Made by a program: the position numbers and the translations under genes
From: Sulfurimonas sp. endosymbiont of Alviniconcha boucheti
GTDB lineage: Bacteria; Campylobacterota; Campylobacteria; Campylobacterales; Sulfurimonadaceae
Length of the DNA: 34,699 nucleotides
Direction: 5' to 3'
Assembly (NCBI GenBank): GCA_021766785.1
Contig: JAICBP010000076.1
Coordinates: 183,743 to 218,441, forward strand
Notes under the pieces: model-generated
What the model saw: only the letters and a program-made list of their open reading frames with translations
What the model was told of the DNA's origin: nothing
Database searches by the model: none
In this document: positions 8,356-12,606 of the stretch, piece after piece
How positions within the stretch are numbered: position 1 is the stretch's first letter
Layout: each line of letters begins with the position of its first letter

Positions 8356-9363
8356 TCAAAAAGACCGTTCAAGAATATGCAAATATTCATAAGTTTTATT
8401 AGCTTTATGATTTCTATTTTCTGTTTTATCTGCTTTAAATCTTTGATACTCTTTTATTTGTAAACTATATTTTCCATATTTTTTCATAACTTCTTCTACA
8501 TCTTCTTTACTCATCAATCCCTCATTATTGTAACTTAAAAATATATATTCAAAATTTGCATTTTTGATAAGTTCATCAAAACTATTTGTTACTTCAGATT
8601 TTTTACAATATTTTGAACGATTGTATTGTGGTAATCCTGTTTTACCTTTTGGATCAAAGGGTTCATATTTTGTTATAGTATTTAGTAAATGATAATTAGA
8701 ACTATATTGTCTTTGATTATAAGGTGGGTCAAGATATAAAATATCTCCACTTATATTTTTAATGAGTTGATTACTATCCATATTAAAAACTTGATGAGAA
8801 TTATCATTTACAATAAAATGAGCAGGTTCTAAAATTAATTCTTTTGAAGCAGATTTTTTAATATGCTTTAAAAATGCTCCATAGACACTAGCAGTATTTG
8901 CTACTTTATCGGCACTTTCAACTAAAGATGCTAATAAAAAATAGTATAAACTATCATTTATTTTTTTAGCTTCATACCATTGTTTTATTTTAGTTCTAAT
9001 TGTATCTATTTTTTTACCATTAATATCACTAAAATATTGTCTTTGACTTCCACTTCCCATACAATAGTTTTTATATATAAAACCATTATCAATTAAAGGT
9101 AGATTATTAAGTTCTTTAATATATTTTTCTTTATCGTTTATGTCTTCATGATTTTCTATATAGTTTTTATTTAATACATAACTATAATGTTCCAAATCAT
9201 TACTAATCACTTGTTTAACATCTTTTTTAAATGTTCTTCCAACTATTCCAGTTCCAGCAAATATATCGCAAAATACCTTTTGAGATAAATCATCTCCAAC
9301 TACTTTTTTAACTTCTTCCTGTATCCAAGAAGATAATTTAAATTTTGAGCCTATATAGTTCAC
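8356..9363 (-). CDS. DNA adenine N6-methyltransferase, D12/Dam class
   Basis: This 335-residue protein has the alpha-type order: the SAM motif FAGTG at 35-39, a long target-recognition region, then DPPY at 212-215. This is the D12 class of N6-adenine methyltransferases and would protect host DNA in the island. The start is GTG at 9363, whose bases overlap the stop of the small HTH gene as GTGA, so the regulator and methyltransferase are coupled. The recognition sequence cannot be read. Base composition is more AT-rich than the flanking genes, which suggests transfer. Confidence 0.88.
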   Translation of the reverse strand: MNYIGSKFKLSSWIQEEVKKVVGDDLSQKVFCDIFAGTGIVGRTFKKDVKQVISNDLEHYSYVLNKNYIENHEDINDKEKYIKELNNLPLIDNGFIYKNYCMGSGSQRQYFSDINGKKIDTIRTKIKQWYEAKKINDSLYYFLLASLVESADKVANTASVYGAFLKHIKKSASKELILEPAHFIVNDNSHQVFNMDSNQLIKNISGDILYLDPPYNQRQYSSNYHLLNTITKYEPFDPKGKTGLPQYNRSKYCKKSEVTNSFDELIKNANFEYIFLSYNNEGLMSKEDVEEVMKKYGKYSLQIKEYQRFKADKTENRNHKANKTYEYLHILERSF

Positions 9364-9575
9364 TTGTTAACCTTTTTATTCTCAATAATTTCTAATGGGC
9401 TAACCTCTAAAAATTCTGCTAATTCAATAACATTACTTTTTATAGGATTAAATTTTTCAGATAAAATATTTGAAACTTGATTTTTAGAAATACCTAATAC
9501 TTCTGCTAATTCAGTTTGATTATTTATTTGCTTTTTTGCCATTAATTCTTTTACCTTGAATTTGTTTATTTTCAA
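9360..9575 (-). CDS. Small XRE-type HTH regulator (controller-like)
   Basis: This 71-residue protein is almost entirely a helix-turn-helix: QTELAEVLGISKNQVSNIL is the recognition module. Its size and place inside a restriction-modification cluster, coupled by a GTGA overlap to the D12 methyltransferase, fit a C (controller) protein that times methylase and nuclease expression. That role is inferred from context. An antitoxin or phage-type repressor is possible but no toxin partner is seen. Confidence 0.75.
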   Translation of the reverse strand: MKINKFKVKELMAKKQINNQTELAEVLGISKNQVSNILSEKFNPIKSNVIELAEFLEVSPLEIIENKKVNK

Positions 9576-9627
9576 AATTATATCCTATAAAAACTTAAAA
9601 TACAAATATTTTATTAACTTTATCATA

Positions 9628-10254
9628 TTATTTTATTAATTTTAGTTCTTTTCTAAAGGCTATTGGATCATACCAAAAACAACCTATGCATCCAAGTTTA
9701 TCTGTATAATTTATATCTCCTTGTGTAAATGATACAGTATAACCCATATGTTCTTTAGCATCATATCTTAAATTAGTTTCTTTACACTCTTTACAGAACT
9801 GTCTTTTTGCATCATTTGCTGGTTTACTTAATGGTTGAAAGTCATCTAAAGTCTGTGTTGTGGTACTCATCACTCTTGAATCGTTCTTTCTTCCATCTTT
9901 GTGATCTACCTCTGTTTTATGATCACAACTTCTAGTTGTACCTAGTACAACACATCTTTGTTTAGCAATTTCTTTTTTTATATCACTTCTTATTGATTGT
10001 GTATGTATTGATGTAGGACAAGTATTAAATCCATTCAATCTAATTCTATCAATCTTATTTCCACTTGTTATAGATTTGTCCGTTTCTAAAATATATTTTT
10101 TTGCTAATGCTGAAGATTTTCTTCCCCAACTTAGACCATTTAAAAGCTCTAAAGTTGAATATTGACCTACAAATTCAGTTGTATTAACCCATCGTGAAAC
10201 ACCATTTTTGTCAGGGTTTGCTAATTTTAAAAATAATTCTTGTTGTGTTGCCAT
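9628..10254 (-). CDS. HNH endonuclease, probable restriction enzyme
   Basis: I place the start at the ATG at 10254, giving 208 residues. It overlaps the upstream stop as TAATG and has AAGGAG 12 bases upstream, whereas the longer TTG-initiated frame contains that ribosome site inside it. The HNH core is C101, C110, then EVDHKDGRKND with H118 as the likely general base, N147, and zinc cysteine pairs C154/C157 and C189/C192. In this cluster it is most simply a type II restriction nuclease. The target is unknown, and a homing or nicking role cannot be excluded. Confidence 0.75.
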   Translation of the reverse strand: MATQQELFLKLANPDKNGVSRWVNTTEFVGQYSTLELLNGLSWGRKSSALAKKYILETDKSITSGNKIDRIRLNGFNTCPTSIHTQSIRSDIKKEIAKQRCVVLGTTRSCDHKTEVDHKDGRKNDSRVMSTTTQTLDDFQPLSKPANDAKRQFCKECKETNLRYDAKEHMGYTVSFTQGDINYTDKLGCIGCFWYDPIAFRKELKLIK

Positions 10255-11309
10255 TATATTATTTGACTCCTTATTATATTCCAATTGTTTAGATAGTCAA
10301 TTTTGTTTAAAATAATTGAATTATTATTTACTTCATATTCAAAGTATTTAAGTGGCATTGCATTTGAATTTTGATTAAAATAAATAAATTCTTGTTGTCT
10401 TAAATTTTTTTTACGAGTACCATTAATTTTGTAACCAATAATTATTGGTTGAAAATATATCAAGTTAAAATTTTGAAATCTATTTTGTAGCCATTGTACA
10501 TATTTAAATATTTGAGTTGTTATACCTTTAGGTATTTCATCTTTTTTTATTTCTATAATATTAAAAATATTATTTATGTCTATTGTTAAAATATCAATAG
10601 CTTGCATACCAGCTCCTGAATACACTTCGTTACCAAGCCATGTAATGTTATTGAATAGTAAATTTGGAAGATTTTCAATTAATAAGGCATGAATATGGTG
10701 TTCTGAATATTGATTATTCAATATTATATTTCGTATATTTGGAGTATTTATTTGTCCTTGATACAGCATTCTGTTAAAAGATAAAATATTATTTCCGTTA
10801 AATGAAAAACTATTTCCAAGCATTGGTGTTGAATTATTTACTAAATTTAGTTTATTAAAAATAATGTTAAATTCATGTGGAAAAATTGGACTACAGCCTC
10901 TAGCCCCTTTTAATTTTCTGTATAATACACTCCACAATATATCTGTAACATTATTAGGTAATATATCAAGTAAATCAAATTCTTCAATACCATATTGAAA
11001 AACAATGTCTGGTTGAATTAAAGCCCTATATTGCAACATTATATTTTGATTATTACCCAAAAATGGCATTATCATTGGTTGTAAATAATGTGTGGTATCA
11101 AAAAAAGGATAAGATGATACTTTATATACTCCATAGAATTTTTTTGTTTTTTGAACATAAAAAATAATTTTGTCATCTATTTTTAATCTTGCAATATCTT
11201 TCCATAATCCAATATTAAAATTTTGATTTGAATTACCAGTACCCACAAATCCATATTCTAAATGAAATTTTAGACTAATTTCATCAACAATAAATAAATG
11301 ATAATTCAT
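10254..11309 (-). CDS. EVE/PUA-like domain fused to NucS-like PD-(D/E)XK nuclease
   Basis: This 351-residue, Asn/Ile-rich protein seems to have two modules. Residues 1-130 (IGLWKDIARLKIDDKIIFYV, then FYGVYKVSSYPFFD) resemble the EVE/PUA-like fold that reads modified bases. Residues about 200-290 look like a DUF91/NucS-type PD-(D/E)XK nuclease, with acidic E212, D239 in AIDIL, and E253-I-K255 in the following strand, then a helix FKYVQWLQ. Such a build suits a restriction or modification-dependent nuclease. The start ATG has AAGGAG nine bases upstream and follows the methyltransferase stop by three bases. The domain calls come from motif reading, not a profile search. Confidence 0.6.
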   Translation of the reverse strand: MNYHLFIVDEISLKFHLEYGFVGTGNSNQNFNIGLWKDIARLKIDDKIIFYVQKTKKFYGVYKVSSYPFFDTTHYLQPMIMPFLGNNQNIMLQYRALIQPDIVFQYGIEEFDLLDILPNNVTDILWSVLYRKLKGARGCSPIFPHEFNIIFNKLNLVNNSTPMLGNSFSFNGNNILSFNRMLYQGQINTPNIRNIILNNQYSEHHIHALLIENLPNLLFNNITWLGNEVYSGAGMQAIDILTIDINNIFNIIEIKKDEIPKGITTQIFKYVQWLQNRFQNFNLIYFQPIIIGYKINGTRKKNLRQQEFIYFNQNSNAMPLKYFEYEVNNNSIILNKIDYLNNWNIIRSQII

Positions 11310-11312
11310 ATC

Positions 11313-12137
11313 TTAAAACTCCTTCTTAAACACAAAAATATATTCATGTTTAAATATATAATAATCACTATTTAAAGCCCTATATCTCCAAATACCACCA
11401 ACACCAAGCTTTCCACGATTTCCTTCAATATTTTTAATAATTGTGCCTTTTAATTTTACTTTAAAATTTCTTTTTATCATATCCATACAATAAAACCCAA
11501 GCGGTATTACTTCACTATTTTTATAAACATCACCAATAACCACAGCAAAATATCTACCTTTTTCTAAATATTTTAGACTATTTTCACAGATAATTTTAAA
11601 CTGTTTTACAAAATCATTTATATTATCAATTTGTGATAAATCATCTTTATTTTCAGTAAATTTAACTATATCCATATAAGGTGGGTGCATAAGCACAAAT
11701 TGTACATTTTTAGAACTAAACATTTTATTTGCATTATCTATGTTTTCATTTACTTGTAACTCATCTAATGAATTACAATGATTTATATAAAAATTATTTG
11801 TATAATTTTCATTATTCATACTATTGTTTACATAATCTAACATTTTAGGATTTATGTCAAATCCTATATATTTTCGATTTAGTTTTTCACATTCAAAAAG
11901 TGTTGTACCACTTCCCATAAATGGTTCTAAAACAATATCATTTTCTTTTGTATATCTTCTAATTAATTGATTTGGAATTTGTGGTATAAAATTACCATGG
12001 TAAACATTTTTGTGTTTACCACTTTTATCTCTTTCACTTATCATCCACAGTGAATCTGTATTTATATCAAGTTCTTTCCAGTTTTGCATATCTAAATCAT
12101 TATATTTCATATCAATATAGTATCTAAAAAATTCCAT
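11313..12137 (-). CDS. DNA methyltransferase, N4-cytosine/N6-adenine, gamma-like order
   Basis: In this 274-residue protein the SAM motif EPFMGSGTT (about 71-79) with YIGFDINP precedes the catalytic motif MHPPY (about 150-154), unlike the usual beta order. HPPY in place of SPPY/DPPY is a less common variant. It is the first gene of the island run and likely the partner of the EVE/PD-(D/E)XK protein. No convincing Shine-Dalgarno precedes ATG 12137, and an internal ATG at residue 10 is an alternative start. It is AT-rich and lacks the window's AAACGCCA octamer. Confidence 0.83.
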   Translation of the reverse strand: MEFFRYYIDMKYNDLDMQNWKELDINTDSLWMISERDKSGKHKNVYHGNFIPQIPNQLIRRYTKENDIVLEPFMGSGTTLFECEKLNRKYIGFDINPKMLDYVNNSMNNENYTNNFYINHCNSLDELQVNENIDNANKMFSSKNVQFVLMHPPYMDIVKFTENKDDLSQIDNINDFVKQFKIICENSLKYLEKGRYFAVVIGDVYKNSEVIPLGFYCMDMIKRNFKVKLKGTIIKNIEGNRGKLGVGGIWRYRALNSDYYIFKHEYIFVFKKEF

Positions 12138-12292: not shown

Positions 12293-12606
12293 AAATATAA
12301 TATCCTCCTTTGTCAAGACCACTTAACCAAACACTCTTATTTTACTCATTATGCTACTAATCGTAACTCTTGATTTTGAAACTCTAAACTATGAACAGCA
12401 TTATAATAAACCTCATTAGGAGTTTTGTTTCCAATAGCAGAGTGTAATCGTTTTGAGTTGTATTTTACTATGTAGTTATCTATAGAATACCTAAAAACTC
12501 TGCGCTATATGTTTTTCTTTTGGTACTTATTTGTATTGTTCTTATTTTATCATTTGAAATAAGAATATTTTATTAAGTGGTTTATTTTTCTGAGGACATT
12601 ATATTT
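12293..12606 (-). mobile_element. Internally deleted IS3-family element with inverted ends
   Basis: The left end, read rightward from about 12293, and the right end, read leftward from about 12606, align without gaps over about 52 bases with about 37 matches. Shared blocks are AAATATAAT, TCCTC, ACCACTTAA and TCTTATTT. Between them lies only the C-terminus of an IS3 transposase. The element is about 310 bp, so most of the transposase genes are gone, leaving a MITE-like relic. Exact termini and target duplication are not resolved. Confidence 0.65.
12349..12504 (-). pseudogene. IS3-family transposase (OrfB) C-terminal remnant
   Basis: The minus strand encodes about 51 residues ending in a normal stop. 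They include YIVKYNSKRLHSAIGNKTP and NEVYYNAV, the typical C-terminus of the IS3 OrfB DDE integrase (the YNxKRxHSAxGxxTPxE motif). An in-frame TAG at 12505-12507 and loss of all upstream catalytic sequence show it is dead. It lies inside the deleted element. Confidence 0.85.

What the first reader, a model, noticed from the sequence alone, without database searches (positions are those of the whole stretch)
8356..12137. R-M island with two methyltransferases, two unlike nucleases and a regulator
Five tightly spaced genes encode a gamma-order methyltransferase, an EVE/PUA-like PD-(D/E)XK protein, an HNH nuclease, a small HTH protein and a D12 adenine methyltransferase. Either two R-M systems are interlocked by overlapping genes (TAATG, GTGA), or one asymmetric-site system uses two methylases plus an extra reader-nuclease. 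The combination is not one I recognise.
Basis: partly seen in the sequence, partly recalled or inferred. Interest (0 to 1): 0.62.

Follow-up and report, generated by a model that had tools for sequence, protein, structure and literature searches.

The report
CATG restriction island, two swappable nucleases
Five neighbouring genes form what looks like one bacterial DNA-defence system: two enzymes that mark the cell's own DNA, very probably at CATG, and two unrelated nucleases that cut unmarked DNA, one of them a known kind (NlaIII) and the other an undescribed, widespread family that seems able to stand in for it.

Summary
The five genes are real, intact and at the stated place (refined: 8356-12110, minus strand). 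The HNH gene is a clear ICEA/NlaIII nuclease (PF05315, E 3e-79). The D12 methyltransferase belongs to the family whose Campylobacter and Helicobacter members methylate CATG, so that half is a known kind. The EVE-like gene is the interesting part: a predicted EVE/YTH-fold domain fused to a NucS/EndoMS-like PD-(D/E)XK nuclease, found in no family library above cut-off. I found about 85 distinct relatives in many phyla; 79 sit beside one or both of the same two methyltransferases, in almost every combination. In the D12 tree the nuclease partner has been swapped repeatedly; one EVE-partnered D12 is 96% identical to an ICEA-partnered one. A published C. jejuni cluster with the same set of genes (by order and annotation) shows only CmATG methylation attributable to it, and CATG is the most avoided tetranucleotide around several ICEA-free EVE loci. 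Best reading: one CATG specificity, two methyltransferases (as in DpnII), two isospecific, interchangeable nucleases plus a regulator. It is neither an asymmetric-site system nor, most likely, two systems of different specificity. EVE's specificity is inferred, not shown. New variant of a known kind.

The parts
11313..12110 (-). GAM: gamma-order N6/N4 DNA methyltransferase (265 aa from the start used by relatives; ORF opens at 12137)
   Evidence: PF01555 E 1e-25; FMGSG before HPPYxDIxKF, HPPY present in all 77 relatives listed; relatives start at residue 10
10254..11309 (-). EVE: EVE/YTH-like N-terminal domain plus NucS/EndoMS-like PD-(D/E)XK nuclease, 351 aa
   Evidence: AF2 pLDDT 80; Foldseek to EVE 1wmm E 1.6e-7, YTH domains, EVE-HNH VcaM4I, and NucS 2vld/5gke; conserved D239, E253-x-K255, Q266
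9628..10254 (-). ICEA: NlaIII/IceA1-type HNH nuclease (208 aa from ATG 10254)
   Evidence: PF05315 E 2.9e-79; conserved E-x-D-H-K and N residues retained
9606..9639 (-). Two direct repeats TTAATAAAATA 22 bp apart, probable operator of the HTH protein, just upstream of a TATAAT
   Evidence: Copies at 9629-9639 and 9607-9617; block conserved upstream of HTH in L017, L018, L027, L076, L078
9360..9575 (-). HTH: small Cro/CI-type regulator, 71 aa
   Evidence: HTH_3 E 3e-9; orthologues directly upstream of D12 in L017, L018, L027, L076, L078
8356..9363 (-). D12: D12-class N6-adenine methyltransferase, 335 aa, predicted target CATG
   Evidence: PF02086 E 5e-55; DPPYNQRQY and FAGTG motifs; clusters with ICEA-partnered D12s

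Best explanation
The island is one Type II restriction-modification system built around one palindromic site, CATG. D12 methylates the adenine of CATG in duplex DNA. GAM is a second methyltransferase for the same site, most likely a DpnA-like helper that covers substrates D12 handles poorly, such as incoming single strands or newly replicated DNA (its role is inferred). ICEA is the NlaIII-type HNH nuclease that cuts unmethylated CATG. The EVE protein is a second, unrelated nuclease with the same specificity: its EVE/YTH-fold domain helps recognise unmethylated CATG and its NucS/EndoMS-like PD-(D/E)XK domain cuts. The HTH protein binds direct repeats in the ICEA-HTH gap and controls the HTH-D12 transcript, so modification can be set independently of restriction. 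Shown: genes, motifs, predicted folds, neighbourhoods, partner swapping, CATG avoidance in several relatives. Inferred: specificity of EVE and GAM, methyl sensitivity, regulation.
For: ICEA and D12 are the HpyI/NlaIII pair (CATG assignment: PMC4687069, PMC8743553). About 85 distinct EVE relatives: 79 lie within 5 kb of GAM and/or D12; distinct loci GEID 29, GE 18, GED 18, ED 7, GEI 6, E 5, EI 1, EID 1 (G=GAM, E=EVE, I=ICEA, D=D12); without EVE, ID 10 and GID 8. D12 tree: EVE-only loci pair with ICEA-only loci (L020 with L067, L022 with L059, L025 with L074/L075); at least 10 changes of EVE and 19 of ICEA. H. typhlonius (1,920,832 bp) carries EVE+D12 plus a second D12, 96% identical, next to an 87-aa ICEA remnant; CmATG is reported in its methylome and CATG is at 0.03 of expectation. 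An ICEA-partnered D12 in G127 is also 96% identical to that EVE-partnered D12. C. jejuni HS:19 cluster X has the order D12-hypothetical-zinc ribbon-REase-MTase, as in L024/L026, and its methylome holds RAATTY, CmATG (99%) and one long motif, with no further m6A motif to credit to GAM. CATG is the most depleted tetranucleotide around ICEA-free EVE loci L092, L115 and L122. Two-methyltransferase precedent: DpnM+DpnA.
Against: No experiment shows what EVE or GAM recognises. The window genome shows no CATG avoidance beyond same-genus genomes lacking the system (0.64 against 0.51-0.81), so its activity there is unproven. GAM+EVE-only loci show only mild avoidance (0.71) and a mostly separate GAM branch, so they may have another site. 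The window's EVE sits on a long branch (about 35-39% to most relatives) while its methyltransferases are close to those relatives. Helicobacter EVE+D12 loci may descend from four-gene loci that lost ICEA (zinc-ribbon remnant upstream). Some Helicobacter-family genomes without the system also avoid CATG (2 of 12). The C. jejuni protein sequences were not compared here.
Confidence: 0.64

Rival explanations
1. Two R-M systems of different specificity have merged: ICEA+D12 (CATG) and GAM+EVE (another, unknown site), interleaved in one operon.
For: GAM+EVE stands alone in 18 distinct loci and ICEA+D12 in 10; together they make the four-gene set. GAM+EVE-only loci lack strong CATG avoidance and their GAMs are mostly a separate branch.
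Against: EVE occurs with D12 and neither GAM nor ICEA in 7 distinct loci, where a different EVE site would be unprotected. GAM accompanies ICEA+D12 without EVE in 7-8 loci. The C. jejuni cluster with the matching gene set shows no second m6A motif attributable to it and no m4C motif is listed. CATG is the lowest tetranucleotide near ICEA-free EVE loci L092, L115, L122.
Confidence: 0.22
2. EVE is a Type IV, modification-dependent nuclease (EVE/YTH domain binds a modified base in phage DNA) that travels with a CATG R-M system as a second layer.
For: The EVE/YTH/PUA fold binds modified bases and the known EVE-HNH enzyme VcaM4I is modification-dependent (fold match; paper title and abstract).
Against: 79 of 85 EVE loci keep GAM or D12 beside it, including two-gene pairs with no other recognised nuclease; a Type IV enzyme needs no cognate methylase, and one reading m6A at CATG would kill its host. 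Nuclease swapping around near-identical D12s.
Confidence: 0.1
3. EVE and ICEA act as subunits of one heteromeric restriction enzyme.
For: Both are often adjacent and their genes overlap by one base in the window (TAATG).
Against: Each occurs without the other in many loci; NlaIII-type enzymes act without such a partner (established knowledge).
Confidence: 0.03

Closest known systems
HpyI (iceA1-hpyIM) / NlaIII CATG R-M system
   Same: PF05315 HNH nuclease next to a D12 adenine methyltransferase of the same family
   Different: The window adds GAM, the EVE-NucS nuclease and an HTH regulator between ICEA and D12
Campylobacter jejuni cluster X (HS:19, CjjRM3420_1717-1722) and ST-677 cluster cjj5070_14910c-14950c
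   Same: Same set by order and annotation: D12 (CmATG by SMRT), hypothetical (= EVE position), zinc-ribbon protein, REase (iceA1), second methylase
   Different: Gene order differs from the window, no HTH; the hypothetical protein was not recognised as a nuclease in the passages read
DpnII system (DpnM D12 class + DpnA + DpnII)
   Same: One palindromic site served by a D12 methyltransferase plus a second methyltransferase of the N6/N4 type
   Different: GATC not CATG; DpnA ssDNA activity and competence induction are not known for GAM; one nuclease rather than two
EVE-HNH modification-dependent endonucleases (VcaM4I)
   Same: N-terminal EVE/PUA-superfamily domain fused to a nuclease
   Different: PD-(D/E)XK instead of HNH, and a partner methyltransferase is nearly always present
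NucS/EndoMS mismatch endonuclease
   Same: Catalytic domain fold match; conserved D, E-x-K and Q of the PD-(D/E)XK core
   Different: N-terminal domain is EVE/YTH-like; sits in R-M operons, not a housekeeping repair gene

Membership tests
NlaIII/HpyI CATG Type II R-M | ICEA (PF05315) HNH nuclease | tested here: met
   266 bits against cut-off 24
NlaIII/HpyI CATG Type II R-M | Adjacent D12 methyltransferase of the same family | tested here: met
   50-79% identical to D12s directly beside ICEA in relatives' loci; same tree
NlaIII/HpyI CATG Type II R-M | CATG methylation and cleavage by the window proteins | not testable with these tools
   Inferred from homologues
NlaIII/HpyI CATG Type II R-M | CATG avoidance in the host genome (supportive, not required) | tested here: inconclusive
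   0.64 in own genome, 0.51-0.81 in same-genus genomes without the system
EVE domain family (PF01878) | Score above curated cut-off | tested here: not met
   14.8 against 23 bits; best relative tried 22.1
EVE/YTH/PUA-like fold | Fold match of the N-terminal domain | tested here: met
   1wmm E 1.6e-7 TMt 0.75, THYN1, YTH domains
NucS/EndoMS | Family score above cut-off | tested here: not met
   NucS_C 14.8 against 24; NCBIfam NucS 23.4 against 216; catalytic domain fold match only
Type IV modification-dependent restriction (EVE-HNH) | HNH catalytic domain | tested here: not met
   PD-(D/E)XK residues conserved
Type IV modification-dependent restriction (EVE-HNH) | Works without a cognate methyltransferase | tested here: not met
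   79 of 85 distinct loci carry GAM and/or D12
DpnII-like two-methyltransferase arrangement | D12 plus N6/N4-type methyltransferase in one locus | tested here: met
DpnII-like two-methyltransferase arrangement | Second enzyme methylates the same site in single-stranded DNA | not testable with these tools
   needs enzyme assay
Asymmetric-site R-M with two methyltransferases | Non-palindromic target, one enzyme per strand | tested here: not met
   D12 family target is CATG by published methylomes of relatives; D12 is the only methyltransferase in ICEA+D12 loci
C-protein controlled R-M | Match to known controller (C) protein family | tested here: inconclusive
   PADLOC Control_protein E 0.012 only; conserved direct repeats upstream

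The most novel reading that the evidence does not exclude
The EVE-NucS protein founds a new, phylum-spanning family of Type II restriction enzymes in which an EVE/YTH-type base-reading domain recognises CATG only when its adenine is not methylated, the reverse of the known modification-dependent EVE enzymes, and which is freely interchangeable with NlaIII-type nucleases around shared methyltransferases.
Probability: 0.45. Interest if true: 0.68.

Novelty: new variant of a known kind. Interest (0 to 1): 0.52.

Why it matters
If right, it adds an unannotated restriction enzyme family with a new domain pairing (EVE/YTH plus NucS-like) and shows one recognition site served by a kit of interchangeable parts: two methyltransferases and at least two unrelated nucleases, recombined many times across phyla. 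It would show a modified-base reader fold working as a sensor of the unmodified state, give a testable reason why some hosts keep two nucleases for one site (resistance to phage inhibitors or DNA modifications that stop only one), and annotate hypothetical genes in Campylobacter, Helicobacter, Bacteroidales and candidate phyla.

Tried and rejected
A first GTDB scan with the single window EVE found nothing, because exact peptide patterns were too window-specific; the alignment query worked. No relatives of EVE in plasmid or phage records. BFVD fold search did not return the chlorovirus CATG enzyme CviAII, so a link to it is unsupported. PDB sequence search gave nothing useful for ICEA, D12 or EVE. 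The empty-site test failed: the neighbouring nitroreductase lies in other surroundings in related genomes. Structure prediction of the small extra nuclease-like protein U207 was too poor to use (pLDDT 41). The EVE-domain survey PMC7641849 returned no passage for the terms tried. A heteromeric EVE-ICEA enzyme and an asymmetric-site system were considered and set aside (see rivals and membership table).
Full report
OBSERVATION. The window holds five minus-strand genes between ligA and a nitroreductase gene. In order of transcription: GAM (N6/N4 methyltransferase, motif I before HPPY, gamma order), EVE, ICEA, HTH and D12. Spacing runs from short overlaps to about 50 bp; EVE/ICEA share one base (TAATG at 10254) and HTH/D12 overlap (GTGA). 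Relatives show that GAM starts at 12110, and the ICEA start is the ATG at 10254. Pfam: GAM PF01555 E 1e-25, ICEA PF05315 E 3e-79, HTH_3 E 3e-9, D12 PF02086 E 5e-55; EVE has only sub-threshold matches to EVE and NucS_C. PADLOC recognises both methyltransferases as Type II but neither nuclease as a Type II restriction enzyme.

THE EVE PROTEIN. An AlphaFold model from 12 relatives has mean pLDDT 80. It matches EVE proteins (1wmm, E 1.6e-7), THYN1 with modified DNA, YTH m6A readers and the EVE-HNH enzyme VcaM4I; weaker matches are to the NucS/EndoMS nuclease (2vld, 5gke). D239, E253-x-K255 and Q266 are invariant in all 12 relatives. So it is a predicted EVE/YTH-like reader fused to a PD-(D/E)XK nuclease.

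NEIGHBOURHOODS. In 397 genomes of the phylum 14 have EVE matches; an alignment search of 84,980 species found 80 loci in many phyla (Campylobacterota, Bacteroidota, Clostridia, Spirochaetota, Patescibacteria, Alphaproteobacteria and others). HMM-based annotation gives these distinct classes: four-gene sets 29, GAM+EVE 18, GAM+EVE+D12 18, EVE+D12 7, GAM+EVE+ICEA 6 (some cut by contig ends), EVE with none of these partners 5, EVE+ICEA 1, EVE+ICEA+D12 1. So 79 of 85 have GAM or D12 within 5 kb. Loci fetched by ICEA add ICEA+D12 (10) and GAM+ICEA+D12 (8). Gene order is shuffled, and in Clostridia and some Alphaproteobacteria the methyltransferases are on the opposite strand, so the association is not mere inherited synteny.

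PARTNER SWAPPING. In the D12 tree EVE-only and ICEA-only loci are neighbours several times (L020 with L067, support 99; L022 with L059; L025 with L074/L075, support 100); at least 10 changes for EVE and 19 for ICEA are needed. One genome, identified as Helicobacter typhlonius by its exact length of 1,920,832 bp, has EVE+D12 and, elsewhere, a 96% identical D12 next to an 87-aa ICEA remnant. An ICEA-partnered D12 in another genome (G127) is also 96% identical to that EVE-partnered one. Enzymes this similar should have one target, so EVE must be compatible with the ICEA/D12 target.

THE TARGET. C. jejuni ST-677 and HS:19 carry iceA1, hpyIM-type D12 and a second methylase. In HS:19 cluster X the order 1718 D12, 1719 hypothetical, 1720 zinc-ribbon protein, 1721 REase, 1722 methylase is that of L024/L026, where the hypothetical position is EVE; the C. 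jejuni sequences themselves were not compared. The SMRT motifs of two such strains are RAATTY, CmATG (99.1-99.6%) and AGTN6RTTG; CmATG was assigned to the D12 gene, and no further m6A motif remains for GAM. CmATG is also reported for H. typhlonius. CATG counts against a maximal-order Markov expectation: H. typhlonius 0.03, three other EVE+D12 Helicobacter-family genomes 0.05-0.13, one 0.86; 12 family genomes without a close D12 relative range 0.02-1.03 with two at or below 0.10. This is suggestive only, because the genomes are related. Independent support: around ICEA-free EVE loci in a MAG labelled only 'bacterium', whose EVE groups with Patescibacteria ones (L092), and in two Bacteroidales (L115, L122), CATG is the most depleted of all tetranucleotides, 4/36, 3/43 and 7/53. 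GAM+EVE-only loci pooled show 329/461, about the background level, so their site is open.

MECHANISM. Shown: gene content, motifs, predicted folds, partner swapping, avoidance. Inferred: D12 makes CmATG; ICEA and EVE each cut unmethylated CATG; GAM is a second CATG methyltransferase. The closest precedent is DpnII, where DpnM protects duplex DNA and DpnA methylates single strands during transformation (that DpnM is of the D12 class is from general knowledge). The HTH gene probably has its own promoter region: direct repeats TTAATAAAATA at 9629-9639 and 9607-9617, 22 bp apart, lie in a block conserved upstream of HTH orthologues even where the upstream gene is not ICEA, so HTH probably controls its own and D12's transcription.

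RIVALS. Two merged systems (ICEA+D12 and GAM+EVE) explain the four-gene set simply, but not EVE+D12 loci without GAM, GAM+ICEA+D12 loci without EVE, or the methylome. A Type IV role for EVE does not explain its near-constant methyltransferase company. A heteromeric enzyme is made unlikely by independent occurrence. Weak points: the window EVE is on a long branch (about 35-39% to most relatives) though its methyltransferases are close to theirs, so its specificity is the least certain; the host shows no extra CATG avoidance, which is consistent with recent arrival; and Helicobacter EVE+D12 loci may be four-gene loci that lost ICEA.

VERDICT. Observation confirmed, interpretation partly supported. 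The ICEA-D12 half is an ordinary NlaIII/HpyI-type system. The EVE-NucS nuclease and the interchangeable-parts architecture are a new variant of Type II restriction worth an in vitro test.

Noticed in passing
window 12349-12504, minus strand: Degenerate C-terminal piece of an IS3-like transposase (RRVFRYSIDNYIVKYNSKRLHSAIGNKTPNEVYYNAVHSLEFQNQELRLVA) just upstream of the island; a hint of mobile arrival (translation; family recalled, not searched).
   Followed up: partly
L018 7312-7935; also L137 8208-8771, L153 295-912, L154 277-909, L157 3522-4157: A small protein (about 205 aa) with invariant E, D and D-x-K residues recurs beside these loci; possibly a third interchangeable PD-(D/E)XK nuclease. 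The structure model was too poor to test it.
   Followed up: partly
L018 7932-9185 and L027 7284-8543: Homologous 417/419-aa proteins of unknown family occupy the ICEA position between EVE and HTH-D12.
   Followed up: no
L024 7021-7242, L026 7211-7432, L020 and L022 upstream of EVE: A 73-84 aa zinc-ribbon protein sits before EVE in Campylobacter and Helicobacter; a longer homologue in L078 also matches the ICEA C-terminus.
   Followed up: partly
L118 1172-2104 and L159 7123-7842: Two EVE relatives sit beside a different methyltransferase with DPPY early in the chain, so the family may have moved to other sites.
   Followed up: no
L026 6064-7208: Campylobacter volucris EVE is split into two ORFs (198 and 197 aa), a likely frameshift.
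   Followed up: no
L086-L088, L094, L097, L107, L143, L155, L156, L161: In many GAM+EVE-only loci GAM carries about 100 extra residues and mostly forms a separate branch; these may be a distinct two-gene R-M family with its own specificity.
   Followed up: partly
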